Both the position numbers and the translations under genes were made by a program. DNA of 64,000 bases from Mycobacterium sp. EPa45 (lineage in GTDB: Bacteria; Actinomycetota; Actinomycetes; Mycobacteriales; Mycobacteriaceae): NCBI RefSeq assembly GCF_001021385.1, contig NZ_CP011773.1, forward strand, positions 310,001 to 374,000, written 5' to 3'. Below the pieces are notes generated by a model. That model searched no databases, was not told the DNA's origin, and saw only the letters and a list, made by a program, of their open reading frames with translations. Positions 22,698-53,910 of the stretch are shown here, in pieces (positions within the stretch are counted from its first letter, which is position 1; each line of letters begins with the position of its first letter).

Positions 22698-22805
22698 CTT
22701 CGCAGGGTCGCTACGCTCCTGCCCTCCGCCTAACATTCCCGGGTCGCTACGCTCCTGCCCTACGCCTAACATTCCCGGGTCGCTTCGCTCCTGCCCTCCG
22801 GCTGG
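22698..22805. repeat. Three tandem copies of a 36-bp GC-rich repeat
   Basis: Copies at 22698-22733 (left edge diverged), 22734-22769 and 22770-22805. The core is ATTCCCGGGTCGCT-n-CGCTCCTGCCC. The array starts just behind the esterase stop and forms the last 17 codons and stop codon of the convergent MFS gene. The same unit occurs at 53614 and 42208. Confidence 0.85.
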
Positions 22806-23985
22806 CGCCGACGGCTGCCGCGCCCAGGCAGGCCAGCGCAACGATCGTGGCGAACCACGGGAACACCTGCGCCAGTGGCCATTTGGTGGCAGCCCAGCCC
22901 GCCGCGATCGTCGGCAGCGCCATCGCGGTGTAGGCCAGCAGGTAGAACGCCGACATCGTCTCGCCGCGGCGATCGGACGGCACCACATCGGACAGGTGGC
23001 GCAGCGAACCGCCGAAGCCGAGTCCGAACGTCGCACCCAGCAGTGCGGCCGCGGCGAACACCAACGGCCAGCGGTGGGTGAGCAGCACCGGGATTGTGAG
23101 CAGCAGCGCGACGGCCATGCCGATATCGCCGATCACTGCGGATCGCCGGGCCGGGACCCGGGTGGCAACCAGCTGCGCCATGGCCGCGGCGAACGCCGTC
23201 ACCCCGACCACCCCGCCACCGAACACCAGATTGTGGATGTGGGTCTGCTGTGCGGCCAGCGACGGGTACAGCGACAGCAGCACACCGAGGACCGACCAGG
23301 ACGCCATCGCGCCCAGGGCGGCGAACCAGAAGTCGTCGCGGATCTGCGGCGGCACAGCGGGTTTGCTGATCCGGATGCGGCCACCGGTGCGGCCGGTGTG
23401 GGTCTCCCGCAGTGCGACCACACCGATGCCGACGATCGCGCACACCACCGCGACGACGGCGTAAGGGGTGCGCAGCGGATGCGCGACGTACTGCGCCAGC
23501 AGCGACGAGCCGACGATGGCCACCGTCATGCCGATGTTGAAGCTGACGCCGCTGAGCTGGCCGGAGCGCACGCCGTGCTGCGGTCGCAGATCGAGCAGCG
23601 CCGCGGCGGCGGCGACCACGATCGAGCCGACTGCCGCGCCGTGGATGGTGCGGGCCAGCAAGAGCATCTCGATGCTGTCGGCGATCAGAAAGATGCCCAG
23701 TCCGGCGATCAACGCGATCAGCGCGCCCAGCAGCACGGGCTTTCGGCCCACGACATCGGAGATCCGGCCGGACACCAGGACCGCGGCCAGCGCGGCGAAC
23801 GCGTAGACCGCGAACACGATGGTGGTGGCCAGCGGCGAGAGGTGCCAGTTCGATTCGTAGATACCGTACAGCGGCGCGGGCAGGCCCGAGACGCCGAGCG
23901 CAACGCCGCTGAGCACGAGCAGCAGGGGGTACGCCCAGCGCTGGCCGGTGACGTGGCCGGCGGGTGCCTCGTGCACACAAGTCAT
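22747..23985 (-). CDS. MFS transporter controlled by the adjacent ArsR-like regulator
   Basis: A 412-residue transporter with about 12 helices; the MFS loop motif GRISDVVGRKPVLLGALI lies between helices 2 and 3. I chose ATG 23985, which has GGGAG 7 nt upstream; ATGs at 24012 and 24021 would put the start inside an operator-like repeat. The last 17 residues (RRAGAKRPGNVRRRAGA) and the stop codon come from the 36-bp repeat array, so the original C-terminus has been replaced or extended. The partner regulator is divergent. Likely a drug or metabolite efflux pump. Confidence 0.85.
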   Translation of the reverse strand: MTCVHEAPAGHVTGQRWAYPLLLVLSGVALGVSGLPAPLYGIYESNWHLSPLATTIVFAVYAFAALAAVLVSGRISDVVGRKPVLLGALIALIAGLGIFLIADSIEMLLLARTIHGAAVGSIVVAAAAALLDLRPQHGVRSGQLSGVSFNIGMTVAIVGSSLLAQYVAHPLRTPYAVVAVVCAIVGIGVVALRETHTGRTGGRIRISKPAVPPQIRDDFWFAALGAMASWSVLGVLLSLYPSLAAQQTHIHNLVFGGGVVGVTAFAAAMAQLVATRVPARRSAVIGDIGMAVALLLTIPVLLTHRWPLVFAAAALLGATFGLGFGGSLRHLSDVVPSDRRGETMSAFYLLAYTAMALPTIAAGWAATKWPLAQVFPWFATIVALACLGAAAVGASRRAGAKRPGNVRRRAGA

Positions 23986-23999
23986 GAGGACTCCCGGTA

Positions 24000-24017
24000 G
24001 TTTGATGGTCATCGAAC
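24000..24017. promoter_or_regulatory. Operator copy 1 (imperfect 7-4-7 inverted repeat)
   Basis: GTTTGAT and ATCGAAC flank 4 bp. It copies the perfect site at 24037 with one mismatch and the same spacing. It lies 14 bp before the MFS start codon, where it would block transcription or translation. Confidence 0.65.
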
Positions 24018-24036
24018 CCATTCGAGCGTACGCTAG

Positions 24037-24054
24037 GTTTGATGTCGATCAAAC
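24037..24054. promoter_or_regulatory. Operator copy 2 (perfect 7-4-7 inverted repeat)
   Basis: GTTTGAT and ATCAAAC flank GTCG. Its centre is 37 bp from that of copy 1. Both are in the divergent promoter between the MFS gene and the ArsR-like gene, so this regulator is the natural candidate to bind. Confidence 0.7.
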
Positions 24055-24089
24055 TTCGCAGGCCGTGACGGCGGACACAGGAGACAACC

Positions 24090-24431
24090 GTGGTTGAGGT
24101 GGAGGCATTCCACGCCGATAGCTACCCCGTGCATCCGGTCGGCTCCGTGCACCAGGTGCTCGCCGCCCTACAAGACCCGGCGCGGCTGGAGATGATCCGG
24201 CGGCTGCGTAACGCGGGCGGCCCGCTGCAATGCAGTGCGCTCTACGACGGCATCAACAAGTCCACCGCAACCCACCACTTCAAGATCTTGCGCGAGGCCG
24301 GCCTGCTCGAGCGACTGGTCCTCGGCGGACTGACCCATCAGCGGCTGCGCACCGAAGAGGTCGACGAGGCGCTGCCGGGTCTGCTGGCTTCGGTGGTCGG
24401 TGGTGCCAACCGCGAAGCGGCTGTGCGCTGA
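24090..24431 (+). CDS. ArsR-like winged-helix regulator
   Basis: A 113-residue helix-turn-helix protein: VLAALQDPARLEMIRRLRNAGG, then LYDGINKSTATHHFKILREAGLLER as recognition region and a short wing. The metal-site motif ELCVCD of classical ArsR/SmtB sensors is absent, so it likely senses an organic ligand. GTG 24090 is preceded by AGGAG. It is divergent from the MFS pump, and two matching inverted repeats lie between them, giving a simple ligand-induced efflux module. Confidence 0.85.
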   Translation: MVEVEAFHADSYPVHPVGSVHQVLAALQDPARLEMIRRLRNAGGPLQCSALYDGINKSTATHHFKILREAGLLERLVLGGLTHQRLRTEEVDEALPGLLASVVGGANREAAVR

Positions 24432-24432
24432 G

Positions 24433-24948
24433 CTACCAGCTGCCTCGGTGAACCACCTCGTCGAATGGGCGGCGATTGGGCTTGCGGATGGGAACGAGCG
24501 GGCGATCGGCGGGATATCCCAGGCCGAGTAGATAGGCGACCAGGTAGCCCTCGGGCACACCCAGGATCGCCCGGGCTTTGTCCTGATCGCCGATCGCCGA
24601 GTGCCCGGTGCCGACGCCGAGATTGGTGGCGGCGATGGCCATCGCCATGGTGGCCTGCCCCAGGTCGTACTGGTCGACCAGCCTGGTCCGCTCATCCGGT
24701 GGCTCGGGTATGACCAGGCCGATCGCGGCCTGAGCCTTCGCGATATGGGTGGCGCCCACCCAAACCGTCGAAAGATCCTGCAGTACCGCTGGATCGGTGA
24801 CGATGACGAAATCCCAGTGCTGATTGTTACGAGCCGACGGGGAACGCCACCCGGCTTCGAGGATCTGGTGGACGTCGTCGTCCGGGATCGGAGTCGAGGT
24901 GTAGCTGCGGACATTTCGTCGCGCGCGGATGGCGTCCCAGGCGTCCAC
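24433..24948 (-). CDS. Nitroreductase family protein
   Basis: A 171-residue FMN-dependent oxidoreductase of the nitroreductase fold: AIRARRNVRSYTSTPIPDDD at the start, the FMN-contact AGWRSPSARNNQHWDFVIV, and the later LGVGTGHSAIGD and LGVPEGYLVAYLLGLGYP. It would reduce nitroaromatics, quinones or flavins. It starts at GTG 24948, 6 nt after the stop of zmp1 on the same strand, so it is probably the second gene of that operon. The stop is 1 bp from the convergent ArsR-like gene. Confidence 0.85.
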   Translation of the reverse strand: MDAWDAIRARRNVRSYTSTPIPDDDVHQILEAGWRSPSARNNQHWDFVIVTDPAVLQDLSTVWVGATHIAKAQAAIGLVIPEPPDERTRLVDQYDLGQATMAMAIAATNLGVGTGHSAIGDQDKARAILGVPEGYLVAYLLGLGYPADRPLVPIRKPNRRPFDEVVHRGSW

Positions 24949-24954
24949 GCGTGT

Positions 24955-26931
24955 CTAGCTCCAGATCCGCACGCGCCGGTCGGGTTCCAGGTACAGCTCG
25001 TCGTCCTCGCTGACCTCGAACGCCTCGTAGAAGGCGTCCATATTGCGGATGACACCATTGCAGCGGAACTCCGGTGGTGAGTGTGGGTCGGTAGCGAGGC
25101 GCCGAATCGCTTCGGCTTCACGGGATTTCGTGCGCCATACCTGCGCCCACCCGAAGAACACCCGCTGCTGGCCGGTCAGCCCGTCGATCACCGGTGCGGG
25201 CTTGCCCTCCAGCGAGAGTTCGTAGGCGAGCAGCGCGATCGACAGCCCACCGAGGTCGCCGATGTTCTCACCGACGGTGAACGCGCCGTTGACATGATGC
25301 GAGGGCTCAAGGCCGCGCGGCACGAACGCCTCGTACTGCTCGATGAGTTGCTTGGTCCGCGTGCCGAATTCGGCGCGGTCCGCGTCGGTCCACCAGTCGA
25401 CGAGGTTGCCGTCGCCGTCGTACTTGGCGCCCTGATCGTCGAAGCCGTGGCCGATCTCGTGGCCGATCACCGCCCCGATCCCGCCGTAGTTCGCGGCATC
25501 GTCGGCGTCGGCGTCGAAGAACGGCGGCTGCAGGATCGCCGCGGGGAAGACGATCTCGTTCATGCCCGGGTTGTAGTAGGCGTTGACCGTCTGCGGGGTC
25601 ATGAACCACTCGTCGCGATCGACCGGGCCGCCCAGTTTGGCCAGCTCGCGGGCGTGTTCCACCTCAGCACCGCGAATCACGTTGCCATACAGGTCGTTAC
25701 GATCGATCACCAGCGTCGAGTAGTCTCGCCACTTCTTGGGATAGCCGATCTTCGCGGTGAACTTGTCCAGCTTGGCCAGCGCCCGCTGGCGGGTCTCCGG
25801 TGTCATCCACTCCAGGTCGTTGATGCTGACCCGGTAGGCCTCCCGCAGGTTGTCGACGAGCACGTCCATGCGGGCCTTGGCATCCGGCGGGAAGTGCTGC
25901 TCGACGTACACGCGCCCGACCGCATCGCCCATCAGGGCTTCCACCAGTGACACCGCGCGCTTCCAGCGTTCGCGGATCTGCTCGGTGCCCGACAGCGTCC
26001 GGCCGTAGAAGTCGAAGTTCGCCTCGACCACCGCGTTCGTGAGGTAGGCGGCGCGGGCGTTGATCAGCCGCCAGCGCGCCCAGTCCTGCCAGTCGGCGAA
26101 GTCGTGGCTCGACCACAGCTCTGCGAAGGCCGTCAGGTAATCCGGCTGGCGCACAACGAGTTCGGCCACGGCATCCGGCGAGGTGCCCAGGGCGCCGACC
26201 CAGCCTGCCCAGTCGAAGCCGGGTGCCTCGGTAGACAGGTCGGTGAACGCGCGCAGGTTGTAGGTCAGGTCGGCGTCGCGGCGCTTGACGACATCCCAGT
26301 GCGCGGCAGCGAGTTTGGTCTCCAGTGTGACGATCCGCGCGGCACGCTCGGTGTGGTCATCGGGCGTGCCGCCCAACACGAGGGCGAACATCGTGGCGAT
26401 GTGGGCCGGGTAGGCGCCCAGGATCGCGGCGTGCTGATCGTCGCGGTAATACGACTCGTCGGGCAGCCCGAGCCCGGATTGCGTGACGTGCACCAGGTAG
26501 CGCGAGGAGTTCTTCGAATCGGTGTCGATGTAGAGCCCGACACCACCTCCGACGCCGGTGCGCTGCAGCGCGCCGATCACGGCGGCCAGTGCGGCCGGGT
26601 CGGCCGCGGCGTCGATGTGGGCGAGCTCGTCGAGCAGCGGCTGCACGCCGCGGCGCTCGACAGCCTCGGCGTCCAGGAAGCTGGCGTACAGATCGCCGAT
26701 GCGCTGCTCGTCCGTACCATCTGGACCGCTCGCCTGAGTGATCAGCTCACGGACCTGCTCCTCGGCCCGGTCGTACAACGTCCGGAACGCGCCGTCGGTC
26801 GCCCGGTCACCGGGGATGGTGTACTCGGCGAGCCAACGCCCGTTGACGTGGCCGAACAGATCGTCTTGAGGGCGAATCTGGGCCTCGACGTGGGACAAGT
26901 CGATACCCGAGCGCAGCGTTTGAACCGTCAC
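24955..26931 (-). CDS. zmp1: M13-family zinc metalloprotease Zmp1
   Basis: A 658-residue neprilysin-type endopeptidase, close to Rv0198c in length. The zinc site is IGHEIGHGFDDQGAKYD with the third ligand Glu in ENIGDLGG; the substrate-binding NAYYNPGMNEIVFPAAIL stretch and the long N-terminal helical domain (QDDLFGHVNGRWL) are typical. The C-terminus ends RRVRIWS. There is no classical signal peptide; Zmp1 of M. tuberculosis is nonetheless found outside the cell and dampens inflammasome activation. GTG 26931 (VTVQTLRSGID) was chosen; the longer reading upstream overlaps the divergent gene. Confidence 0.92.
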   Translation of the reverse strand: MTVQTLRSGIDLSHVEAQIRPQDDLFGHVNGRWLAEYTIPGDRATDGAFRTLYDRAEEQVRELITQASGPDGTDEQRIGDLYASFLDAEAVERRGVQPLLDELAHIDAAADPAALAAVIGALQRTGVGGGVGLYIDTDSKNSSRYLVHVTQSGLGLPDESYYRDDQHAAILGAYPAHIATMFALVLGGTPDDHTERAARIVTLETKLAAAHWDVVKRRDADLTYNLRAFTDLSTEAPGFDWAGWVGALGTSPDAVAELVVRQPDYLTAFAELWSSHDFADWQDWARWRLINARAAYLTNAVVEANFDFYGRTLSGTEQIRERWKRAVSLVEALMGDAVGRVYVEQHFPPDAKARMDVLVDNLREAYRVSINDLEWMTPETRQRALAKLDKFTAKIGYPKKWRDYSTLVIDRNDLYGNVIRGAEVEHARELAKLGGPVDRDEWFMTPQTVNAYYNPGMNEIVFPAAILQPPFFDADADDAANYGGIGAVIGHEIGHGFDDQGAKYDGDGNLVDWWTDADRAEFGTRTKQLIEQYEAFVPRGLEPSHHVNGAFTVGENIGDLGGLSIALLAYELSLEGKPAPVIDGLTGQQRVFFGWAQVWRTKSREAEAIRRLATDPHSPPEFRCNGVIRNMDAFYEAFEVSEDDELYLEPDRRVRIWS

Positions 26932-26997
26932 CCAACCATCCTTACCAGAGGTCCGGCCGCAGCGTCCGGCCCGGAGGCGGCCCGGTAACCTCGCTTC

Positions 26998-27588
26998 ATG
27001 CCCGAGGCCGAGAACGCGGAGGACGAGGCACCCGACCGGGTGTTCACCGGTTACGGCGTCGCCTCCGTCGTCCTCGGTGTGATGGCGGTCGCAGCCATCG
27101 TGCTCGGCGTGCTGATCTGGTCGGGACACCGCGACGCGACCGACGAGCGGGCATACCAATCCCGGGTGATGACGGCGGCCGCGGAGTGGACCGGCATCTT
27201 GATCAACATGAACGTCGACAACGTCGACACCAGTCTGGCGAAACTGCATGATGGCACCGCGGGCCAGCTCAACTCCGACTTCGAAGCTGCGATCAAGCCC
27301 TATCGCGAGGTGGTCCGCACCCTGCAGGCCCGCACCACCGGCCAGATCGAGTCGGTGTCCTTCGAAGCGGTGCACCACGATCTCAACGTCCAGCCGGGGC
27401 AGGGCGCGCCGGCTGCGGCCGGCCTGCCGCCCGAATTGGCCAAGCGCACCGACTCCGTGCTGGTAATCGCCACCTCGGTCAGCGAGAACGCCGGCAACAA
27501 GCCGACGACGGTGCGCTGGAACCTGCGGCTCGGCGTCTCCGACGTGGACGGCAAGCCGATGATCTCGCGGCTCGAGTCGCTGCGATGA
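26998..27588 (+). CDS. Single-pass membrane protein (Rv0199-type, Mce-associated-like)
   Basis: A 196-residue protein with an acidic cytoplasmic head (residues 1-13), one membrane helix (ASVVLGVMAVAAIVLGVLIW) and an outer domain with a helical segment then beta strands, like Mce-associated proteins of the Rv0199/Rv0200 type. ATG 26998 is divergent from zmp1. It overlaps the next gene by 4 bp (ATGA), so both are made together. The role is unknown; the fold suggests an envelope accessory protein. Confidence 0.82.
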   Translation: MPEAENAEDEAPDRVFTGYGVASVVLGVMAVAAIVLGVLIWSGHRDATDERAYQSRVMTAAAEWTGILINMNVDNVDTSLAKLHDGTAGQLNSDFEAAIKPYREVVRTLQARTTGQIESVSFEAVHHDLNVQPGQGAPAAAGLPPELAKRTDSVLVIATSVSENAGNKPTTVRWNLRLGVSDVDGKPMISRLESLR

Positions 27589-28274
27589 GGAACCTGGCCC
27601 GGGTCCTCGCCTTCGACGTTGCCGCGCCGCTGGCCGCCATCGCCGCGCTGCTGGCGATCGGCGTGGTGCTCGGCTGGCCGCTGTGGTGGGTGGCGGTGTG
27701 CTCGATGCTGTGCCTGCTGATCGTCGAGGGTGTGATGGTCAACTTCGTGTTGTTCCGCCGGGATTCGGTGACAGTGGGCACCGACGACGAAGGCCCGGGT
27801 CTGCGCCTGGCCGTCGTCGCCCTGGCGACCACGGCATTGGTGGCCACCGTCATCGTCGGCTACACCCAGTGGACACGCTCGGACCACGACTTCACCCGGG
27901 ACTCCGCCGAAGTGGTGCGCATTGCCACCGCCGCCTCCGAGGCCACCGCGACGTTCACCCCGGCCGACCCGACATCATCGATCAACCGGGCCGCGACGTT
28001 CATGGCGCCCGACCGGGCCGAGGCGTTCAAGAACCAATTCGGCCAAGCGACTTCAGATCTGGCCAAGAAGAACATCTCCGCGACGGCGCAGACCATGTCG
28101 GCCGGTCTGGAGGCGCTGGGGCCGACGGCGGCCAGCGTCGCGGTGGTGATGCGGGGAACCCAGAGTCAGCCGGGTCAGCAGCCGAACACCGCGGTGTTGG
28201 CGCTGCGAGTCAGCCTGATCAAACAGGACGGCCGGTGGCTGGTCGGCGACATCTCGCCGATCAACGCCCGATGA
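27585..28274 (+). CDS. Membrane protein (Rv0200-type)
   Basis: A 229-residue protein, equal in length to Rv0200. Two helices near the start (AAPLAAIAALLAIGVVLGW and WWVAVCSMLCLLIVEGVM) and one at about 75-95 (AVVALATTALVATVIVGY) precede an outer domain of about 130 residues. That domain resembles the one in the preceding gene, so the pair may form a complex. Translation is coupled through an ATGA overlap. Its end overlaps the convergent CoA-binding gene by 14 bp. Function unknown. Confidence 0.82.
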   Translation: MRNLARVLAFDVAAPLAAIAALLAIGVVLGWPLWWVAVCSMLCLLIVEGVMVNFVLFRRDSVTVGTDDEGPGLRLAVVALATTALVATVIVGYTQWTRSDHDFTRDSAEVVRIATAASEATATFTPADPTSSINRAATFMAPDRAEAFKNQFGQATSDLAKKNISATAQTMSAGLEALGPTAASVAVVMRGTQSQPGQQPNTAVLALRVSLIKQDGRWLVGDISPINAR

Positions 28275-28683: not shown

Positions 28684-28687
28684 CGAC

Positions 28688-32115: not shown

Positions 32116-32390
32116 GAACTGCTGGATGGCGATCTCCCCGCATTCTCCCCGGATTGCGTGGTTGCGAGCGTACCGCAGAAGACTGTGCGCTGACCTGTCG
32201 TGATCGGCGTCTTAGCTGGATTGAGACCTCCTGATCAGGCCTTCGTTACCCGAGCTCGATTGGCGGCCCAACCGTTGCCGGTGGCAGGATGTCCGATGAC
32301 CACGCCAGGGGTCGGGGACCGTGCCGAGTCGCAGCGTTGCTGCGCAGCGGAGCGACGTCATCGATACGTCAGCGAATTCGAGGAGCCCCC

Positions 32391-33421: not shown

Positions 33422-33427
33422 AACGCG

Positions 33428-38234: not shown

Positions 38235-40295
<2,061 letters not shown>

Positions 40296-41745: not shown

Positions 41746-44712
41746 CTACGAGCGCCCTTCGCGGCGCAACAGATCCGCCGCGCTGATGCCGCCGCCGCGG
41801 CGCTGGCGTTCCTCGCCCTCTTTCTTGCCGCGCGAATTCAGCTTCTCCGTGGCCACTTCGGAGTCGCCCTGATCGGGGCGGCTGACCGGGATGGCGCGGG
41901 TCTCCTCGGCGCTGACCGCGGGGGAGACGTCGTCGGTGCCGTTCTGGTCGTGCGGGGCCGGGATCGCCGTGGTGGTGTCCTCCGGAGCCGACATCGAATG
42001 CGTGGGCTCGGCCGACGGCGGCTGCGGTGGAGTCGGACCGGTGCCGGGCTTGCCCCGCAGCTCACCCAGCCACGACTCGATCTCCCGGTCCGGCGCCGGC
42101 GGCGCCGGCGGGCGGTGGGGCCGGGCCGCCGAGGTGGCGGTGTTCACCGCGTTCTTGACGACGTTCTTGGCCACCGAGAAGCGGGTGGTCGGGGCATCGG
42201 CAATCGCCCGGTCGCTGCGCTCCTGCCCACCGGCAGTAGTTGCCTCGACGGGATCCGGCATCCGCGCGGTCCCGGCCGCCGACGGTGCTTGCTGCGGCGG
42301 CGGATTGCGATATTCCGCGCGGCCCACGACACGGGGCATCGCCCGGCCCTCGCCGGGATGGGTCGGGTCGTGGACGGGACGGGCGGCCGGGGCAGGAGCG
42401 CCCGCACCGACCAGGGCGGGATCCGGCTCGCGCACGACCGGCCGCTTGCGCTCGTCGGGCAGGTGCGTCTCGCCGAGACCGATCCTGTTCTGCAGACGCT
42501 TCATCCAGCGCGGCGCCCACCAGCAATCGTCGCCGAGCATCTTCATGATCGCCGGCACCAGGAACATTCGAACGATCGTGGCATCCAGCAGCAGCGCGAT
42601 CAGCAGACCGAACGCGAGGTACTTCATCATCACCAAGTCCGAGAACACGAACGCGCCGGCGACCACGGCCAGCACCAGGGCCGCCGCGGTGATCAGGCGG
42701 CCGGTGGTCGCGGTACCGATCCGGATCGCCTCGGTGGTGGACATGCCGCGTTCTCGGGCCTCCACCATGCGGGAGACCAGGAACACCTCGTAGTCGGTGG
42801 ACAGGCCGTAGATCACCGCGATGATCAAACCGATCATCGGCGCCATCAGTGGCTGTGGCGTGTAGTTCATCACCCCGGAGCCGTGGCCGTCGACGAACAT
42901 CCAGGTGAGCACGCCCATCGTGGAGCCCAGCGTGAGCGCGCTCATCAACGCGGCCTTGATCGGCAGCACCAGCGAGCCGAACGCGAGGAACATCAGGATC
43001 GTCGTCGTCACGATCAGGAGCACGACCATCAGCGGCAGCTTGGCGAACAGGCTATGGATACTGTCCTGCTCCAGCGCAGGTGTGCCGCCCACGTAGAGCG
43101 ACACCCCCTTGGGTGGCGTGATCGACCGCAATTCGGTGATCTTCTTGGCCGCGTCGTTGCGGTTCACCAGACCGTTCTGGATCACCCGCACCGACGGATC
43201 CTTCGATGCCCCGTCGAGGTAGGACCGTTCCTTCCACATGGCGTCGGGGTTGTTGTCCGGGTCGGTGAACCCGCTGACCGCCATTGCCTTGTTGCGGACC
43301 TCCGCGACCTGCTGGTCGGTGACCGGTTGGCCGTCGTTGTTCTTCATCACCAGGGTCAGCGGCTCGGTGCGGAAGCCGGGGAAGATCTTGTCGAACTCCT
43401 CCTGAGCCGTGCGCACCGAGTTGTCCGGCGGCAGGTACTTCTCGCTGATGCCACCCAGGGACAGCTTCCCGAGCGGCACGATCAACACGATCATGAAGAT
43501 CACGATCGGCGCGGCGAACAGGATGGGGCGCTTCATCACCCGGTTGACGAGCTTGCCCCAGAAGCCGGCCTCGACCTCTTCGCGGGTCTTGGTCTTCTGG
43601 GTCTTCTCGGCGAACCAGTCGATGATCGCGCGGGAGAAGCCCCAGTTACGCAGGAACGGCACCCGCAACAGCGTGCGGACGCCGAGCGCGTCGACGTTGG
43701 GGCCGAGGATGGCCAGGATCGCGGCCAGCACGGTGATCGACAGAATCGCCGACAGCATCACCGAGGCGATGATCGCGTAGGTGATCGACTTCAGGAAGCC
43801 CTGGGGGAACAGCAGCAGTGGCAGCGACGACGCCACGATGATGACCGCGGAGAAGATGACCGTGCGTCCCGACGTCATCATCGTCCGGCGGACCGCTGCT
43901 TCGGTGTCGTAGCCCTCGGCTATCTCTTCTCGGAACCGGCTGACGATGAACAACCCGTAATCGATCGCGATACCCAAGCCGATCAGGGTCACGACCGGTT
44001 GGGCGAAGAAGTGCACGGGTGTGACGAGGGCGATCAACCGCATGATGCCCAGCGCCCCGAGGATGGACAGGCCGCCGATGATGGCGGGCAGGCTGGCGGC
44101 GACCACGCCGCCGAAGACAAAGAACAGCAGCACCGCGACCAGCGGAATGGCGGCCACCTCGGCGCGCTGCTGGTCCTCGCCGATGGTGCCGGTCAGCTCG
44201 GCGGCCAGCGGCTGCAGGCCCGCGAGCTTGACGTTGACATCCTTGATGAAGAAGTCCTTGTCGACCTTCTTGTAATTGTTCAGGATCGTGTCGTCGTCAT
44301 TGCCCTTGAGCTGGATCGACATGAACGCGTGCTTCTTGCTCGCGTCGGCCATGTTGGACAGCAACTGCGGGCTCTTGAAGTAGCCGATCGACCGCAGGAT
44401 CTCGTCGGGGTGGTCTCGCTCGACCTGCGCGAGATTGTCCAGGATCTTCTTCTGGAAGTCCGGGTCGTCGACGGTCTTGCCGTCCGGTGCTGTGTAGATC
44501 GCGATGATGTGGCCGGACGTGTCTCGGCCGTAGGCCGCGTCGGCGATCAGCGACGCCTTCACCGAAGAGCTGCCCTCGTCGTAGAAGCCACTCTGGGTCA
44601 CGTGCTTGCCGAGGCTGGCTCCGTAGATGCCGCCGCCGACGCACAGCGCGACCATGACCGCGATCACGATGTATCGGTAGCGATACACAGTTCGACCCCA
44701 CCAGGCGAACAC
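41746..44712 (-). CDS. mmpL3: MmpL3 trehalose monomycolate transporter
   Basis: A 988-residue RND transporter that moves trehalose monomycolate across the inner membrane and is essential in mycobacteria. The MFAWWGRTVYRYRYIVI start (GTG 44712), the proton-relay Asp-Tyr pairs in GLGIAIDYGLFIVSRF and YGLSTDYEVFLVSRMVEA, and two outer domains are all present. The C-terminal 240 residues are a disordered cytoplasmic tail; within it a 36-bp repeat unit (42208-42233) encodes GGQERSDRA. Order Rv0205-mmpL3-Rv0207c-trmB is kept. MmpL3 is the target of SQ109 and related inhibitors. Confidence 0.95.
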   Translation of the reverse strand: MFAWWGRTVYRYRYIVIAVMVALCVGGGIYGASLGKHVTQSGFYDEGSSSVKASLIADAAYGRDTSGHIIAIYTAPDGKTVDDPDFQKKILDNLAQVERDHPDEILRSIGYFKSPQLLSNMADASKKHAFMSIQLKGNDDDTILNNYKKVDKDFFIKDVNVKLAGLQPLAAELTGTIGEDQQRAEVAAIPLVAVLLFFVFGGVVAASLPAIIGGLSILGALGIMRLIALVTPVHFFAQPVVTLIGLGIAIDYGLFIVSRFREEIAEGYDTEAAVRRTMMTSGRTVIFSAVIIVASSLPLLLFPQGFLKSITYAIIASVMLSAILSITVLAAILAILGPNVDALGVRTLLRVPFLRNWGFSRAIIDWFAEKTQKTKTREEVEAGFWGKLVNRVMKRPILFAAPIVIFMIVLIVPLGKLSLGGISEKYLPPDNSVRTAQEEFDKIFPGFRTEPLTLVMKNNDGQPVTDQQVAEVRNKAMAVSGFTDPDNNPDAMWKERSYLDGASKDPSVRVIQNGLVNRNDAAKKITELRSITPPKGVSLYVGGTPALEQDSIHSLFAKLPLMVVLLIVTTTILMFLAFGSLVLPIKAALMSALTLGSTMGVLTWMFVDGHGSGVMNYTPQPLMAPMIGLIIAVIYGLSTDYEVFLVSRMVEARERGMSTTEAIRIGTATTGRLITAAALVLAVVAGAFVFSDLVMMKYLAFGLLIALLLDATIVRMFLVPAIMKMLGDDCWWAPRWMKRLQNRIGLGETHLPDERKRPVVREPDPALVGAGAPAPAARPVHDPTHPGEGRAMPRVVGRAEYRNPPPQQAPSAAGTARMPDPVEATTAGGQERSDRAIADAPTTRFSVAKNVVKNAVNTATSAARPHRPPAPPAPDREIESWLGELRGKPGTGPTPPQPPSAEPTHSMSAPEDTTTAIPAPHDQNGTDDVSPAVSAEETRAIPVSRPDQGDSEVATEKLNSRGKKEGEERQRRGGGISAADLLRREGRS
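42208..42233. repeat. Single core of the 36-bp repeat inside mmpL3
   Basis: CCGGTCGCTGCGCTCCTGCC continuing CACCGG matches the core of the arrays at 22698 and 53614. It lies in the disordered C-terminal tail of MmpL3 and is translated in frame. Confidence 0.7.
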
Positions 44713-44761
44713 CTAAGCTCCTAACCAAATCTTCTGCGACCTGCGCATCGGTTTCTCCTAC

Positions 44762-46206: not shown

Positions 46207-46299
46207 GAACAGAGGTGTACCCGCCTCGTGGTGCAGATTGATACCCAACAGTTGCCTTCCCCTGGTAGTGGCTCGCGCCACAGGCCCGCTGGTGTCAGC

Positions 46300-47175: not shown

Positions 47176-48632
47176 CCGAGCCCGTCGACGCTCTGCTGTC
47201 GCAGATCGACCCGAACCTGGCTGCGCCGTCGATCGTCCGCCGCGATGTGCTGCTGGTGGCCGGTCCGTGGCTGGCCGGCGCGAGCAGTGTGGCCCTCGCG
47301 CTGCGAGAGCAGCTGCCCGGACACACCGTGGTCGAAGCCGACGAGCTCGCCGCCAATGAGGCGCCGACCGCGGTGGTGTTCGTGGTTTCGGCGACGGCCC
47401 CGCTGACCGAGTCGGACTGTGTGCTGCTGGATTCCGTTGCCGGCGACACCGACACGGTGATCGGGGTGGTGGCCAAGATCGACGTGCACCGCACCTGGCG
47501 CGAGGTGCTCGACGCCGATCGCGCGCTACTGACTCAGTGGGCGCCTCGCTACTGCGATGTGACCTGGGTGGGTGCTGCCGCCGCGCCGGATCTGGGGGCA
47601 CCCGTCGTCGACGACGTGGTCGCCGCAGTGCGGGATGCACTCGACGATGACTCCTTGGAGCAACGAAATCGATTGCGGGCGTGGGAAAATCGACTGCTGA
47701 CACTGGCGCGTCGACTCGATCGTGAGGTGACCGGCGCAGGCCGGGAGGCGCGGCTGGCCGCACTGCACGAGCAGCGCACTGCGGTTCTGCAGCAGTTTCG
47801 GACGGACAAGTCGCAGCGAATGATCGCCCTGCGCAGCCAGATTCAGCAAGCCCGGCTTGCGCTGTCCTACTTCGCCCGCAACAGGTGTGCGTCGGTTCGG
47901 ACCGAGCTGCAGGAAGACATCGCGTCCCTGAGTCGACGCACAGTGGTCGGCTTCCCCGACGAGGTTCGGCGCCGCGCCACCGAGGTGGCCGACGACGTCG
48001 CCGACGGAACCACCGGGCAGCTGACCGACATCGGCGACGTTCTGGGACTGGCCGTCGACCCGGTGGACTCGCGCCCGGTCGTCGACATAGGTGCCGCGCC
48101 GGTGCGCTCCCGCGGCCCCGAAACCCGCCTGATGCTGCTGTTCGGTGCGGCCTTCGGCGTCGGGGTCGCACTGACGCTGAGCCGGGTGTTCGCCGACCTC
48201 GCCCCGCGGTGGGCGGTCGGCGGTGCCATCGGCGGGGCGGTGACCGGGGTGGTCGTGACGCTGTGGGTGGTCGGTGTTCGCGGGCTGTTGCAGGACCGGG
48301 CGGTGCTCGACCGCTGGGTGGCGGAGGTGACCGGCCGGCTGCGCGCCGCGTTGGAGGAGTGGGTGGCCGGCTGTGTGCTGGCGGCCGAAGCATCGCTGGG
48401 CCGAGCCGTCGTCGAACGCGACGCCGTGGACAATGCGCGAACCGGGGATTCGGTGGCCCGGATCGACCGCGAGATTCGCCACCATGCGCTCGCCGTGACC
48501 CGTGCCACGGCGGCCCGCGACCGGGAGGGACCGGTCATCGGCCGGGCGCTGACGGCGGTGCGTGAGGAACTCGCCAGACTGAATCGATGCAATGCCCTCA
48601 ATTACGGGCTTCTGAATCGTTCCTGTGAGTGA
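47172..48632 (+). CDS. Coiled-coil membrane protein (Rv0210-type)
   Basis: A 486-residue protein. The first 160 residues look like a degenerate P-loop domain (LLVAGPWLAGASSVALALR, VVFVVSATAPLTESD, VIGVVAKIDVH) with no Walker lysine. A long helical region (LEQRNRLRAWENRLLTLARRL onward) leads to two membrane helices at about 320-360 (LMLLFGAAFGVGVALTL, GGAIGGAVTGVVVTLWVVG) and a C-terminal helical part. GTG 47172 overlaps the previous stop. The layout of GTPase-like head, stalk and membrane hairpin resembles dynamin-like proteins; function unproven. Confidence 0.78.
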   Translation: MTEPVDALLSQIDPNLAAPSIVRRDVLLVAGPWLAGASSVALALREQLPGHTVVEADELAANEAPTAVVFVVSATAPLTESDCVLLDSVAGDTDTVIGVVAKIDVHRTWREVLDADRALLTQWAPRYCDVTWVGAAAAPDLGAPVVDDVVAAVRDALDDDSLEQRNRLRAWENRLLTLARRLDREVTGAGREARLAALHEQRTAVLQQFRTDKSQRMIALRSQIQQARLALSYFARNRCASVRTELQEDIASLSRRTVVGFPDEVRRRATEVADDVADGTTGQLTDIGDVLGLAVDPVDSRPVVDIGAAPVRSRGPETRLMLLFGAAFGVGVALTLSRVFADLAPRWAVGGAIGGAVTGVVVTLWVVGVRGLLQDRAVLDRWVAEVTGRLRAALEEWVAGCVLAAEASLGRAVVERDAVDNARTGDSVARIDREIRHHALAVTRATAARDREGPVIGRALTAVREELARLNRCNALNYGLLNRSCE

Positions 48633-48648
48633 TCGGACATAATCCCGA

Positions 48649-48676
48649 TTAACCGCGGGTATCTCACCCGCGTTAA
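48649..48676. promoter_or_regulatory. Inverted repeat upstream of pckG
   Basis: TTAACCGCGGGT and ACCCGCGTTAA pair with one bulged C across 5 bp. It lies 80 bp before the pckG start and 17 bp behind the previous stop, so it may be an operator or a terminator of the upstream operon. AT-rich ends argue for a binding site. Confidence 0.5.
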
Positions 48677-48756
48677 CCTACTTTTCAGGGAGGACCGTGT
48701 CTCGGCGCGGAAACCGGCCTGCGTCCTGGCCACAAAAGTAAGCAGGAGATAGAGCG

Positions 48757-50583
48757 ATGACTTCAGCGACCATTCCCGGTCTGGATAACGCACCGACCAA
48801 GCATGAGGGCCTGCTCGCTTGGGTCCAGGAAGTCGCCGAACTCACGCAGCCCGACCAAGTGGTCTTCGCCGACGGTTCCGAAGAGGAGTACCAGCGGCTG
48901 TGCGACCAGTTGGTCGCCGCCGGGACCTTCACCAAGCTGAGCGACTCCGAGGAGCCCAGCTCGTACCTCGCCCGCTCGGCCCCGTCCGACGTGGCGCGCG
49001 TCGAGTCGCGCACGTTCATCTGCTCGGAGCGCGAGATCGACGCCGGCCCCACGAACAACTGGATGGACCCGGCCGAGATGCGCGGCATCATGACCGACCT
49101 CTACCGCGGTTCGATGCGCGGCCGCACCATGTATGTAGTGCCGTTCTGCATGGGCCCGCTCGGGGCTGAGGATCCCAAGCTCGGCGTCGAGATCACCGAC
49201 TCCGAATATGTGGTCGTCTCCATGCGGACGATGACCCGCATGGGCAAGGCCGCGCTGGAGAAGATGGGCGACGACGGCTTCTTCGTCAAGGCTCTGCACT
49301 CGCTGGGTGCGCCGCTGCAGCCGGGCGAAGAGGACGTGCCGTGGCCGTGCAACGACACCAAATACATCACGCACTTCCCGGAGACCCGTGAAATCTGGAG
49401 CTTCGGTTCGGGTTACGGCGGCAACGCGCTGCTGGGCAAGAAGTGCTACTCGCTGCGCATCGCCTCGGCGATGGCGCACGACGAGGGCTGGCTCGCCGAG
49501 CACATGCTGATCCTCAAGCTCATCTCCCCGGAGAACAAGTCGTACTTCGTCGCGGCCGCGTTTCCGTCGGCCTGCGGCAAGACCAATCTCGCGATGCTGC
49601 AGCCGACCATCCCCGGCTGGCGCGCCGAGACCGTCGGCGACGACATCGCGTGGATGCGCTTCGGCAAGGACGGCCGGCTGTACGCCACCAACCCGGAGTT
49701 CGGCTTCTTCGGTGTGGCTCCGGGCACCAACTGGAGCTCGAACCCGAACGCGATGAAGACCGTCGCGGCCGGTAACACCGTCTTCACCAACGTCGCGATG
49801 ACCGACGACGGTGGCGTGTGGTGGGAAGGCCTCGAGGGCGACCCGCAGCACCTCATCGACTGGAAGGGCAACGATTGGACGCCCGACTCCGACGAGAAGG
49901 CCGCGCACCCGAATTCGCGTTACTGCACCCCGATGTCGCAGTGCCCGACGCTGGCCCCGGAGTGGGATGACCCGCAGGGCGTGCCGATCTCGGCCATTCT
50001 GTTCGGCGGCCGCCGCAAGACGACGGTGCCGCTGGTGACGCAGGCCCGCGATTGGCAGCACGGTGTGTTCATCGGTGCCACCCTCGGTTCCGAGCAGACC
50101 GCCGCCGCCGAGGGCAAGGTCGGCACCGTCCGCCGCGACCCGATGGCCATGCTGCCGTTCCTCGGCTACAACGTCGGCGACTACTTCGCCCACTGGATCA
50201 ACCTCGGCAAGAACGCCGACGAGTCCAAGATGCCGAAGATCTTCTTCGTCAACTGGTTCCGCCGTGGCGACGACGGCCGATTCCTGTGGCCGGGCTTCGG
50301 AGAGAACAGCCGCGTGATGAAGTGGATCATCGAGCGCGTCGAGGGCAAGGCCAACGGTTCGACCACGCCGATCGGCATCGTGCCCAGCGCCGGCGATCTG
50401 GATCTCGAAGGCCTGGACGCCGATCCGGCGGACGTCAACGAGGCGCTGGCGGTCAACGTCCAGGAATGGCGCGACGAGCTGCCGCAGATCGAGGAGTGGT
50501 TTTCCTTTGTCGGCGAGAAGCTGCCGACCGGGGTGAAGGATGAGTTCGAGGCGCTCAAGCAGCGTCTCGCCGAAAGTTCCTAA
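48757..50583 (+). CDS. pckG: Phosphoenolpyruvate carboxykinase (GTP)
   Basis: A 608-residue gluconeogenic enzyme that converts oxaloacetate and GTP to phosphoenolpyruvate, GDP and CO2; mycobacteria need it to grow on fatty acids. The kinase loop is [17 protein letters not shown], with the P-loop Cys of GTP-type enzymes; [12 protein letters not shown], the [19 protein letters not shown] segment and NCMGPL-like PFCMGPLG are present. ATG 48757 follows AAGCAGGAG. Length matches Rv0211 (606). It precedes fatty-acid activation genes, consistent with lipid-based growth. Confidence 0.96.
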
Positions 50584-50602
50584 CCGCTGAGCGCACAACG
50601 AG

Positions 50603-50630
50603 GAGCCAGTTGACACCTGTCAACTGGCTC
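50603..50630. promoter_or_regulatory. Perfect 13-bp inverted repeat between pckG and fadD4
   Basis: Arms 50603-50615 and 50618-50630 are exactly complementary around a 2-nt CC loop. The inner part holds TTGACA on both strands. It ends 17 bp before the fadD4 ATG. It may be an operator over the -35 region of fadD4, or a hairpin terminator for pckG; no T run follows, which favours the operator. Confidence 0.6.
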
Positions 50631-50647
50631 TGTCGTATTGTGCATCC

Positions 50648-52183
50648 ATGCAGATCCGCGAGCATGCGCAGGCCACTCCCGACAAGCCGGCCGTCATCTT
50701 GTACCCGTCCGGAAAAACCGTCACGTTCGGCGAGATGGAAGCCCGGGCCAACCAGCTGGCACACCTGTTCCGCCAGGCCGGACTGGTCGAGGGTGACGCC
50801 GTCGCGATGCTCCTGGAGAACAACGAGCATTTCCACACGGTGATGTGGGCGGCTCGCCGCAGCGGCCTGTACTACGTGCCGATCAACACCCACCTGACCG
50901 CTGCCGAGGCGGCCTACATCATCAACAATTGCGAGGCCAAGGCCATCATCGGGTCGGTGGCGCTGCGCGAGACCCTCGCGGGCCTCGGCGCGGAATTGCC
51001 CGACGGCCTGCCGAAGCTGCTCGTGATCGTGGACGGCGAACTCGACGGCTGGCAGGCCTACCCCGACTGTGTTGCGGATCTGCCGACCACCCCCATCAGC
51101 GATGAGATCGAAGGCGACCTGCTGCAGTACTCGTCGGGAACCACCGGGCGCCCCAAGGGGATCAAGCGCGAGCTACCCCACCTGCCGCCGTCGGAAGCCC
51201 CTGGTCTGATGAGCGCTCTCGTCGGGTTCTGGATGGACCCCGACGGCATCTATCTGAGCCCGGCCCCGTTGTATCACACGGCGCCATCGGTGTGGTCGAT
51301 GTCCATGCAGGGCGCCGGCATCACGGTCGTGGTGCTGGAGAAGTTCGACGCCGAGGGCACTCTGGACGCAATCCAGCGCTACCACGTCACCCACGGCCAG
51401 TTCGTGCCGGTGATGTTCACCAGAATGTTGAAGTTGCCTGAGAGCGTGCGTAACTCGTACGACATCTCCAGCCTGAAGCGCGTCATGCATGCTGCGGCGC
51501 CGTGCCCGGTGGAGATCAAGAAGCAGATCATCGACTGGTGGGGACCCATCGTCGACGAGTACTACGCCTCTTCGGAGGCCATCGGCTCGACGTTGATCAG
51601 CGCCGAGGAGTGGCTGGCCCATCCGGGTTCGGTCGGCAAGCCGATGCTGGGAAATCTGCACATCCTCGACGAGGACGGCAATGAGTTGCCCCCAGGAGAG
51701 CCCGGCGAGATCTACTTCGAGGGCGGTAATACCTTCGAGTACCTCAACGATTCCGAGAAGACCGCTGCGGCGCGGCATTCCGAGGGCTGGATGACTGTCG
51801 GCGACATCGGCTACGTCGACGAGGACGGCTATCTGTACCTCACCGACCGGCGCCACCACATGATCATCTCCGGCGGGGTGAACATCTATCCGCAGGAAGC
51901 CGAGAACATGTTGGTCACGCACCCCAAGGTGATGGACGCCGCGGTGTTCGGCGTGCCCGACGAGGAGATGGGCCAAAGCGTCAAAGGCGTGGTCCAGTTG
52001 GTCGATCCGTCGGAGGCGACGGACGAATTCGCCGAGGAGCTGCTGGCGTGGCTGCGAGATCGGCTGGCGCACTACAAATGTCCGCGGTCGATCTCCTTCG
52101 AGGCCGAATTGCCCCGCACCGACACCGGCAAGCTGTACAAACAGGAACTGATCGTCAAGTACTCGCCCGCGCCGACCGGCTAG
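50648..52183 (+). CDS. fadD4: Acyl-CoA ligase FadD4
   Basis: A 511-residue ATP-dependent acyl-CoA synthetase of the AMP-binding superfamily. Motifs in order: P-loop YSSGTTGRPKGIKR, APLYHTAPS, YYASSEAIGSTLIS, the hinge YLTDRRHHMIISGGVNIYPQE and the catalytic lysine in TGKLYKQEL near the end. It activates fatty or aromatic acids as CoA thioesters. Position after pckG equals Rv0214 (nadR and Rv0213c are absent here). ATG 50648 lies next to a palindrome that likely regulates it. The crotonase gene starts directly after the stop. Confidence 0.88.
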   Translation: MQIREHAQATPDKPAVILYPSGKTVTFGEMEARANQLAHLFRQAGLVEGDAVAMLLENNEHFHTVMWAARRSGLYYVPINTHLTAAEAAYIINNCEAKAIIGSVALRETLAGLGAELPDGLPKLLVIVDGELDGWQAYPDCVADLPTTPISDEIEGDLLQYSSGTTGRPKGIKRELPHLPPSEAPGLMSALVGFWMDPDGIYLSPAPLYHTAPSVWSMSMQGAGITVVVLEKFDAEGTLDAIQRYHVTHGQFVPVMFTRMLKLPESVRNSYDISSLKRVMHAAAPCPVEIKKQIIDWWGPIVDEYYASSEAIGSTLISAEEWLAHPGSVGKPMLGNLHILDEDGNELPPGEPGEIYFEGGNTFEYLNDSEKTAAARHSEGWMTVGDIGYVDEDGYLYLTDRRHHMIISGGVNIYPQEAENMLVTHPKVMDAAVFGVPDEEMGQSVKGVVQLVDPSEATDEFAEELLAWLRDRLAHYKCPRSISFEAELPRTDTGKLYKQELIVKYSPAPTG

Positions 52184-53137
52184 ATGCGTCTCATCGATCT
52201 CTGCGACCCGCCCCCGATCGGGGTTATCGGGCCGCCGGGCGTCGTGGTAGCGGTCGGGGAGTCATCGACACCCGAAGGTGAATTCTGGCTCGATACATCC
52301 ACTTTCGCGTTGTCGGAGGGTGAGCAGGAAGATCGCCGGTTCGTCACGGTGGATTCGGTGAGCGACACGGTGGCCGAGCTGCGTGAGCGCTGCGCGCGTT
52401 GGCCGCACGCTGCTGCTGTGTGTGACGACGTGCTCCGGTCGGTGGACGTGACAGGTCCCGCGTTGCCGGGCATTATCACCGAATCACTGGCGTATTCGAC
52501 GCTGCAGTCCGGACCCGAGTTCGCCCGCTGGCTACAATCCCGTGGGCCGGCAGCGTTGCGTGACATCCCCGACCCGGTACTCGCCGGGCGGGACGGCGGC
52601 ACACTTCGGATCACGTTCAACCGGCCGCAGCGGCACAACGCGTTCAGTACCGATGCGCGGGCACTGCTGTTGGAGGCGCTGACCGTCGCGCTGCTCGACG
52701 ACACAGTCACCGAGGTGGTGCTCGGCGGAAACGGCGCATCCTTCTGCAGCGGTGGTGATCTCGGCGAGTTCGGCACGTTCGCCGACCCGGCCAGCGCTCA
52801 CCTCGCGCGAACCCGGCACAGCCCGGCGCTGGCTCTCGACGAACTGACGGGGCGGCTCGGCCGGTTGTGCCGGGCCGAAATCCACGGCCGCGTGCTGGGC
52901 AGCGGGCTGGAGATGGCGTCGTTCTGTGGCTGGGTGCGCTGCGATCCCGACGCGGTCCTCGGGCTACCGGAGCTGACGCTGGGATTGATCCCCGGGGCAG
53001 GCGGCACCGTGAGCATCACTCGGCGGATCGGCCGTTGGCGCACAGCCTTTTTGGTTCTCTCGGGCCAGACGATCGACCCGGCCACCGCGCTGGCGTGGGG
53101 TTTGGTTGATGAGGTCAGCTCGAGCGGCGCAGCGTGA
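52184..53137 (+). CDS. Enoyl-CoA hydratase/isomerase family protein
   Basis: A 317-residue crotonase with an unusual N-terminal extension of about 140 residues. The crotonase core begins at ITFNRPQRHNAFS; oxyanion segments are NGASFCSGGDLGEFG and LGSGLEMASFCGW; LTLGLIPGAGGT and GLVDEV follow. The active-site glutamates of classical hydratases are not both obvious (LPELTLGLIPGAGGT keeps one Glu), so dehydration, isomerisation or hydrolysis cannot be distinguished. ATG directly follows fadD4. It overlaps the convergent GntR gene by 23 bp. Confidence 0.85.
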   Translation: MRLIDLCDPPPIGVIGPPGVVVAVGESSTPEGEFWLDTSTFALSEGEQEDRRFVTVDSVSDTVAELRERCARWPHAAAVCDDVLRSVDVTGPALPGIITESLAYSTLQSGPEFARWLQSRGPAALRDIPDPVLAGRDGGTLRITFNRPQRHNAFSTDARALLLEALTVALLDDTVTEVVLGGNGASFCSGGDLGEFGTFADPASAHLARTRHSPALALDELTGRLGRLCRAEIHGRVLGSGLEMASFCGWVRCDPDAVLGLPELTLGLIPGAGGTVSITRRIGRWRTAFLVLSGQTIDPATALAWGLVDEVSSSGAA

Positions 53138-53906
53138 CCCGGTAGGTGTACTGCTCGGGCAAGAATTGGCTGACCGCCAGCTCGACCGGGGTTCCGGTGG
53201 TATCGGAGTACAACCGGTCCACCCGCAGCATCGGGTGCTCCGGTGGGCAGCCGAGTGCGCCGGCGACCACGTCGTCGGCGCACGCGACCGTGATCGACTG
53301 TGCCGCTTCGGCGATCGGTTGGTCGAGGTGCGGTTCCAGCACGCCGATGACGGTGTTGGTACCGACCGCGCCGTCGGCCAGCTCCGGAGAGTCGAACACC
53401 AGCCGGGCCACCGACTCCGGCAGGTGCACGGTGGTCACCACGAACGGGACGCCATCGTGCAGCCGGCGAAACACCACCGTGTAGACCACGTCGTGGTCGA
53501 GGCGAAGCCGGCTGGCCGCAGTCACGTCGACACGACGCGAAAGGCCCTGCAGCACTTCCATCGTGGTGTCTTCGGACAGGCTCATCAGGTCCTCGATGGA
53601 ACCCAATTGCCGCAAATATCCCCGGGTCGCTCCGCTCCTGCCCGCCGGAAGATATTCCCGGGTCGCTCCGCTCCTGCCCGCCGGAAGATATTCCCGGTTG
53701 GCGTACGTCCCGCGGCCCGGCACCCGGTAGACCACACCTTCGGCCACGAGATCCTGGAACGCCCGGCGCACCGTCTGCCGGGACAGCCCGTGCTCGGCGA
53801 CGAGCTCCGACTCGGTCGGCAAGCGCACCCCCTCGGGGTAGGACCCGGCCGCGATGTCGTCGCGAAGCCGTTGCCGTAGAACCTGATACGCGGGTGCGGG
53901 TTTCAT
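53115..53906 (-). CDS. GntR/HutC-type regulator with an in-frame repeat insertion
   Basis: A 263-residue regulator: winged helix at residues 5-72 (LRQRLRDDIAAGSYPEGVRLP, RQTVRRAFQDLVAEGVVYRV) and a UTRA ligand domain from about 100 on (YTVVFRRLHDGVPFVVTTV, LRVDRLYSD, RVTLRR at the end). Between them the linker carries two copies of EYLPAGRSGATR, coded by the 36-bp repeat at 53614-53697, which is a multiple of three and keeps the frame. ATG 53906 was chosen. It probably controls the neighbouring acyl-CoA genes; fadE3 stops 4 bp upstream of it on the same strand. Confidence 0.88.
   Translation of the reverse strand: MKPAPAYQVLRQRLRDDIAAGSYPEGVRLPTESELVAEHGLSRQTVRRAFQDLVAEGVVYRVPGRGTYANREYLPAGRSGATREYLPAGRSGATRGYLRQLGSIEDLMSLSEDTTMEVLQGLSRRVDVTAASRLRLDHDVVYTVVFRRLHDGVPFVVTTVHLPESVARLVFDSPELADGAVGTNTVIGVLEPHLDQPIAEAAQSITVACADDVVAGALGCPPEHPMLRVDRLYSDTTGTPVELAVSQFLPEQYTYRVTLRRSS
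53614..53697. repeat. Two and a third copies of the 36-bp repeat inside the GntR gene
   Basis: Copies at 53614-53649 and 53650-53685 and a 12-bp partial third copy to 53697. The unit reads AGATATTCCCGGGTCGCTCC plus GCTCCTGCCCGCCGGA. It adds 12 codons per copy to the regulator linker. Same family as at 22698. Confidence 0.88.
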
Positions 53907-53910
53907 GGCA

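What the first reader, a model, noticed from the sequence alone, without database searches (positions are those of the whole stretch)
22698..53697. A 36-bp mobile-looking repeat is translated in three frames at three genes
The unit ATTCCCGGGTCGCT-n-CGCTCCTGCCC occurs as 3 tandem copies at 22698-22805, one core at 42208-42233 and 2.3 copies at 53614-53697, with an identical 36-bp period at both arrays. Read on the minus strand it ends the MFS pump as RRAGAKRPGNV, gives GGQERSDRA in the MmpL3 tail and EYLPAGRSGATR twice in the GntR linker. Three reading frames of one DNA sequence mean spread at nucleic-acid level, not shared protein function. The length is a multiple of three, so insertion is tolerated. 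No transposase or known element explains it.
Basis: partly seen in the sequence, partly recalled or inferred. Interest (0 to 1): 0.82.

Follow-up and report, generated by a model that had tools for sequence, protein, structure and literature searches.

The report
Tiny mobile DNA repeat in mycobacteria
A piece of DNA only about 26-30 letters long has copied itself into dozens of places in this mycobacterium and many of its relatives, in and between genes, duplicating a few letters of landing sites; it is among the smallest mobile-looking DNA families, and what moves it is unknown.

Summary
The core GGTCGCTNCGCTCCTGCCC occurs 6 times in the window (0.23 expected with up to 3 mismatches) and 43 times exactly in the 6.18-Mb genome (reversed control 0). 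It is in 182 of 394 genus genomes, 0-108 copies each, in 0 of 24 sampled genomes of other genera, and on one Nocardia contig. Across 184 loci the unit is TYCCCG-GGTCGCTNCGCTCCTGCCC-KCCGR, without a stable hairpin: 139 single, 45 in arrays of period 36 (mostly 35-39). At ten sites, 79 of 95 anchored orthologues lack it, 14 carry it, 2 are unclear; at GntR the six most similar relatives lack exactly 72 bp. Flank repeats of 7 or more bases cluster at 35-39 bp spacing (14 of 150 cleaned loci, 1.25 expected). So a roughly 26-bp element inserts with roughly 10 bp of target duplication, about 12 codons, then amplifies in tandem. The three window genes read it in three frames. RAYT-type transposase, reverse transcriptase and Cas1 profiles find nothing in this genome. 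Closest known kind: cyanobacterial small dispersed repeats. The machinery is unknown.

The parts
22705..22728 (+). copy 1 of the array at the esterase/MFS gene ends (core 22706-22724, right end TCCG); usual left end missing
22736..22764 (+). copy 2 (TTCCCG + core 22742-22760 + TACG); N=A makes the TAG stop of the MFS gene at 22747-22749
22772..22800 (+). copy 3 (TTCCCG + core 22778-22796 + TCCG)
22747..24021 (-). MFS transporter whose C-terminal tail runs into the array; 4 of 7 relatives read end ...RPAS* instead
42204..42232 (+). single copy (TCGCCC + core 42210-42228 + ACCG) in the mmpL3 tail
41746..44712 (-). MmpL3-type transporter (Pfam MMPL); copy read as GGQERSDR; of 8 relatives aligned 3 have 2 copies, 5 have none by alignment (1 of the 5 scored unclear by script)
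53619..53648 (+). copy 1 in the GntR gene (TCCCCG, which is target sequence, + core 53625-53643 + GCCGG)
53655..53684 (+). copy 2 in the GntR gene (TTCCCG + core 53661-53679 + GCCGG)
53625..53696 (+). 72-bp insertion (2 x 36) absent from relatives; each 36 bp = element + imperfect copy of target AnATATYCCCG
53115..53978 (-). GntR-UTRA regulator; insertion lies between the DNA-binding domain (residues 31-92) and UTRA (138-277)

Best explanation
This is a non-autonomous, very small mobile repeat of about 26-30 bp (consensus TYCCCGGGTCGCTNCGCTCCTGCCCKCCGR). It inserts by copying into new chromosomal sites and duplicates roughly 10 bp of target (5-12 in the cases seen), so one insertion adds about 36 bp, or 12 codons. 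The direct repeats around it then let the element-plus-target unit be amplified or lost in tandem, giving arrays of 2 to 22 copies with a locus-specific spacer. It persists where 12 extra codons do little harm: protein tails, linkers, gene ends and gaps. Shown here: dispersal, empty sites, insertion size, target duplications in a subset, tandem arrays, use of several frames, orientation bias. Inferred: copy-type movement, about 10 bp as the usual duplication, tandem growth by slippage or unequal exchange. Unknown: the trans-acting machinery, which I think is more likely a recombinase encoded elsewhere than a resident RAYT, reverse transcriptase or Cas1.
For: 43 exact genome copies against 0 for the reversed pattern. 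182 of 394 genus genomes, 0-108 copies each. Common ends and otherwise unrelated flanks at 184 loci; 70 of 103 adjacent array spacings are 36. Empty sites: 79 of 95 anchored orthologues at ten sites; at GntR six relatives (flank identity 86-90%) lack exactly 72 bp, and at single-copy sites 36 bp is the commonest difference, 19 of 48. At four of the ten sites (GntR, L058, L061, L064) the duplicated bases stand once in empty relatives and on both sides here. Exact flank repeats of at least 7 bases at spacing 36: 13 against 1.08 in shuffled pairings of 184 loci; after dropping 34 loci with a core-like neighbour, 14 of 150 at spacings 35-39 against 1.25, reached by 0 of 300 shuffles. Left-flank CCG enriched at -16/-15, the array register. 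Array spacers differ between loci and repeat, exactly or nearly, within most. Copy number differs between species at one site: MmpL3 0/1/2, L025 0/1/3.
Against: 136 of 150 cleaned loci show no exact flank repeat of at least 7 bases at spacings 35-39, and mean flank similarity in single copies is weak (z 2.3), so the duplication length rests on a minority. Four of the 23 hits (L075, L128, L137, L167) are overlooked decayed neighbour units rather than target; sites such as L022, whose left flank resembles the element's right end, could be so too. Some insertions fit 5-7 bp of duplication plus 32 bp of element rather than 10 + 26 (L058, L061), and the L013 site gives irregular lengths. Comparisons are between species (flank identity 74-93%), so no insertion was seen within one species. 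No mobilising gene was found. The core was used for selection, so its conservation is not independent evidence; in loci the adjacent CCG was imposed too.
Confidence: 0.74

Rival explanations
1. No dedicated enzyme: replication or repair template switching copies the element into new sites. A stalled strand jumps to an element elsewhere, copies about 30 nt and returns to the target using the element's CCGG or CCCGG ends as microhomology, which creates the flanking repeat.
For: Target repeats often begin with the same NCCGG as the element's right end (L103, L120, L131; also L022, L082, L190, which one search set aside), or the target carries CCCCG like the left end (GntR empty sites). CCG sits at -16/-15 in 37 of 139 single loci, 32 of 116 cleaned ones. 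RAYT, RT and Cas1 profiles have no match in the genome.
Against: The net gain is narrowly near 36 bp, and sites without end microhomology exist (L058, L064, L061). It does not by itself explain why this one 26-mer spreads.
Confidence: 0.25
2. RNA-mediated spread, as suggested (recalled) for cyanobacterial small dispersed repeats.
For: Strong orientation bias: the mRNA would carry GGGCAGGAGCGNAGCGACCC in 100 loci and the other strand in 33 (p about 5e-9), also at one-sided loci, 41 against 9.
Against: A quarter have the other orientation; no RVT_1 match in this genome nor in 11 of the other 19 high-copy genomes; no stable fold; no Rfam match in the window at gathering score.
Confidence: 0.12
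3. Functional DNA sites, such as binding sites of a chromosome-organising or regulatory protein, kept by selection and moved only secondarily.
For: Eighteen core positions are nearly fixed (partly by selection of loci) while N varies (T89 G53 C34 A8). The core looks better kept than flanks at some shared sites (by eye).
Against: 212 of 394 genus genomes have no exact core; copies sit inside coding sequence at unrelated genes; target duplications and empty sites.
Confidence: 0.1
4. Ordinary minisatellites or conserved protein segments.
For: Tandem arrays with 36-bp period.
Against: Same core at tens of unrelated loci, single copies in 139 of 184 loci, different reading frames, absent from 79 of 95 orthologues.
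Confidence: 0.02

Closest known systems
Small dispersed repeats (SDR) of cyanobacteria (Elhai et al. 2008, Genome Res 18:1484; paper not held; known to me from recall and from passages of two papers that mention them)
   Same: About 20-30 bp, dispersed, confined to a group of related genomes, sometimes tandem, apparently mobile, no known enzyme (partly recalled).
   Different: Recalled SDRs have, in some families, predicted hairpins and sit in HIP1 or heptamer repeats; this one has no stable fold, has target duplications in a subset and a 36-bp unit, and lies in an actinobacterial genus.
REP/REPIN elements with RAYT transposases (passages of PMC3733652)
   Same: Short, high-copy, dispersed.
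   Different: Not palindromic; no Y1_Tnp match in this genome.
MIRU (mycobacterial interspersed repetitive units; features recalled)
   Same: Mycobacterial, interspersed, tandem copy variation.
   Different: About 30 bp instead of 46-101 bp; in many species of the genus; inside coding sequence as well.
Rickettsia palindromic elements (recalled)
   Same: In-frame insertions into unrelated genes.
   Different: Those are about 100-150 bp and palindromic.
CRISPR direct repeats (36 bp)
   Same: 36-bp periodicity by coincidence.
   Different: The spacer part is short and mostly the same within an array; no Cas1 match in any of 40 genomes.

Membership tests
Small dispersed repeats (SDR) | about 20-30 nt repeat dispersed at many loci | tested here: met
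   26-30 bp, 43 exact copies in the genome
Small dispersed repeats (SDR) | evidence of mobility | tested here: met
   empty sites in 79 of 95 orthologues; between species only
Small dispersed repeats (SDR) | predicted conserved hairpin (recalled, some families only) | tested here: not met
   fold no better than shuffles, z between 0.05 and 1.27
REP/REPIN | palindromic stem-loop | tested here: not met
REP/REPIN | RAYT (Y1_Tnp) in the genome | tested here: not met
   0 in own genome; 6 of 20 high-copy and 4 of 20 zero-copy genomes have a Y1_Tnp match
MITE | terminal inverted repeats | tested here: inconclusive
   only a short imperfect TTCC..GG/CCGGAA similarity by eye; no long element with these ends was sought genome-wide
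MITE | target site duplication | tested here: met
   14 of 150 cleaned loci against 1.25 expected; confirmed against empty sites at 4 of 10 sites
MIRU | 46-101 bp intercistronic repeat (recalled) | tested here: not met
   about 30 bp, also inside genes
CRISPR array | unique spacers and Cas1 | tested here: not met
   spacers the same or nearly so within most arrays; Cas1 in 0 of 40 genomes

The most novel reading that the evidence does not exclude
A 26-bp DNA sequence that is an active mobile element in its own right in mycobacteria. It transposes with a target duplication of about one helical turn, or through microhomology template switching, without any RAYT, reverse transcriptase or Cas1, prefers the sense strand of genes, and evolves proteins by 12-codon steps.
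Probability: 0.35. Interest if true: 0.82.

Novelty: new variant of a known kind. Interest (0 to 1): 0.66.

Why it matters
It would be a very small dispersed element with both empty sites and target duplications, present in nearly half of the sampled genomes of a bacterial genus. It offers a clean system (up to 108 exact copies, ready-made empty sites in sister species) to ask how DNA too short to encode a protein moves, and how 12-codon in-frame insertions and array growth reshape proteins such as the MmpL3 tail or a GntR linker.

Tried and rejected
Hairpin or REP model: folds no better than shuffles. Replication-strand bias: a hand tally of array strands from the 0-1 mismatch rows gave about equal numbers for the two strands relative to the two chromosome halves, assuming the origin near coordinate 0; not scripted. 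Phage or plasmid origin: no match at the default or relaxed limit for the array; with a 32-nt query at E up to 10 there are 50 plasmid and 5 phage records with partial matches, best E 0.06 in the rows shown, which I take for chance; 1 stretch in the viral contig collection, on a 195-kb contig, not studied. Rfam: no match in the window at gathering score. Printed record: a search for six motif strings found 0 papers; word searches listed nothing whose title or abstract start describes it; that is from listings only. Fixed 10-bp duplication: not every clean case fits (L058, L061). Association with Y1_Tnp, RVT_1 or Cas1 in 20 high-copy and 20 zero-copy genomes: no clear one; the genomes are not phylogenetically paired.
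Full report
Observation. With up to 3 mismatches the window gives 6 matches, all exact, against 0.23 expected. Tandem Repeats Finder finds period 36 at both arrays. In the three minus-strand genes the core falls at three codon phases (ORF coordinates); translation is. The first gene's protein in fact ends RRAGAKRPGNVRRRAGA*, the stop lying in the second copy. Pfam confirms MFS, MMPL and GntR-UTRA proteins; the insertion in GntR lies between the two domains.

Genome and genus. The own genome (6.18 Mb, one contig) holds 43 exact cores, 19 forward and 24 reverse; the reversed pattern has 0. With up to 3 mismatches it is 113 against 45 for the control, so the excess is in close copies. In a first sample 19 of 61 genomes had it, all in the same genus (19 of 37), 0 of 24 in other genera. 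Of 394 genomes of the genus at 90% completeness or more, 182 have at least one exact core, the largest count being 57 + 51 = 108; I count four control hits in that listing.

Anatomy. From 197 loci a script kept 184 distinct places with a core of at most 1 mismatch and at least 40 bases on each side; duplicates and short flanks were dropped. The core is conserved by selection; for loci the CCG before it was imposed too. Not imposed: C at -4 (180 of 184), pyrimidine at -5 (179), T at -6 (131), and C, C, G at +1 to +3 after the core (173, 174, 180 of 184). Beyond these the flanks are nearly unrelated. 139 are single and 45 are arrays; of 103 adjacent spacings 70 are 36, 18 are 37, 13 are 35, 38 or 39, and one each 24 and 58. 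The longest fetched array has 22 copies (G013, L073). Array spacers differ between loci and are the same or nearly so within most loci. Neither strand of the 32-nt consensus folds better than shuffles.

Empty sites. At GntR the relatives read AAATATCCCCG|GTTGGCG or variants, while the window has AAATATCCCCG, then GGTCGCTCCGCTCCTGCCCGCCGGAAGATATTCCCG twice, then GTTGGCG: a 72-bp insertion whose second part resembles the target. Eight further own loci, chosen by me from 43 for good flanks, were compared with 8 close relatives, and MmpL3 with 12, of which 8 were aligned across the site. Orthologues with both anchors found, over ten sites: 95, of which 79 empty, 14 occupied, 2 unclear. The difference is exactly 36 bp at 19 of 48 empty orthologues of single-copy sites and exactly 72 at 6 of 28 at GntR, these six being the most similar ones; the three at the double L061 site differ by 62 to 71. 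All other differences are multiples of three, as expected of linkers that also change on their own; the L013 site is irregular (from +6 to -51). MmpL3 has 2 copies in 3 of 8 relatives and none in 5 by alignment, one of which the script calls unclear; two of the three (L320, L322) carry a further copy elsewhere in the tail in the same frame. The L022 site is occupied in several species at slightly different points, which suggests independent insertions; the L059 site shares a variant core with G009 and looks inherited.

Target duplication. Exact repeats of 7 or more bases between left and right flank, counted by the unit length they imply, peak at 36: 13 against 1.08 in shuffled pairings; 35, 37, 38 and 39 give 1, 4, 3, 2 against 0.29, 0.41, 0.12, 0.14 (184 loci). 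On checking, four of these 23 (L075, L128, L137, L167) are decayed neighbouring units that the 1-mismatch rule had missed. I therefore repeated the test without 34 loci that have a core-like stretch (7 or fewer mismatches of 18) 30-42 bases away, a rule that also removes true cases: 14 of 150 loci remain at 35-39 against 1.25, reached by 0 of 300 shuffles, 7 of them at 36 against 0.61. Clean examples are GTCACGCCCA with 26 bp between (L064), GCCGGACACA (L103), TCCGGACCC (L131), TAGATCTCCC (L197) and GTTCATCC (L166). At GntR, L058, L061 and L064 the duplicated bases stand once in empty relatives and on both sides here. Several repeats begin with NCCGG, the element's own right end; accordingly CCG is enriched in left flanks of single loci at -16 and -15 (22 and 15 of 139, against 0 to 11 at places -40 to -17; 18 and 14 of 116 cleaned, against 0 to 8). 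Against this, 136 of 150 cleaned loci show no such repeat now, and average similarity in single loci is weak (z 2.3 at period 36; arrays 5.0). Decay in unconstrained linkers would do this, but it is an inference.

Orientation. A codon-usage score called the strand of coding flanks: 100 loci with genes opposite to the element as written here, 33 alongside, 8 mixed, 43 not called (p about 5e-9). One-sided loci show it too, 41 against 9, so amino-acid content may not be the whole reason. At the strict threshold 21 of 184 are intragenic, in frame and open; five strand-phase combinations occur among them. That threshold is conservative: it does not count the GntR and MmpL3 copies as intragenic, though both plainly are. 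Reading the six frames of the unit by eye, only N=A creates a stop, in one frame; N=A is rare (8 of 184).

Mechanism. Shown: dispersal, gain or loss between species, about 36 bp per step, flanking repeats in a subset, tandem arrays. Inferred: copying insertion with roughly 10 bp of duplication, then slippage between the direct repeats. Unknown: the agent. In 20 high-copy and 20 zero-copy genomes, Y1_Tnp matches 6 and 4, RVT_1 (any match at E 0.001 or better) 8 and 5, Cas1 0 and 0; the own genome has none of the three. Other transposases were not tested. Template switching at CCGG/CCCGG microhomology is the leading rival.

Known kinds. Small dispersed repeats of cyanobacteria are nearest; that paper is not held, and my knowledge is recall plus passages in PMC3116915 and PMC2884548. 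REP/RAYT facts are from passages of PMC3733652. MIRU and Rickettsia element features are recalled. The six motif strings searched occur in no held paper.

Noticed in passing
window 22747-22749: The stop codon of the MFS gene is made by the rare N=A in the second repeat copy; relatives have a different tail overlapping the neighbouring esterase gene end.
   Followed up: partly
L320, L322 (MmpL3 tails of G077 and G024): A third copy sits at another point of the same tail, read in the same frame (GGQERS), suggesting repeated insertion into one segment.
   Followed up: partly
L073 (G013:C90): 22 tandem copies with period 36; early units differ from the rest by one spacer base.
   Followed up: no
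L082 about 6870-7160 (Nocardia australiensis): An array of several partly decayed 36-bp units on a contig titled Nocardia.
   Followed up: no
L230 (G117, MFS/esterase junction): A short scar resembling an element with an internal deletion at the same junction as in the window.
   Followed up: no
G004, G024, G018 at the L061 site: About 1.4-1.5 kb of other DNA lies between the two flanks where the window's genome has two element copies.
   Followed up: no
window 38318-38769: Runs of 9-18 bp CCGCCG-type tandem repeats.
   Followed up: no
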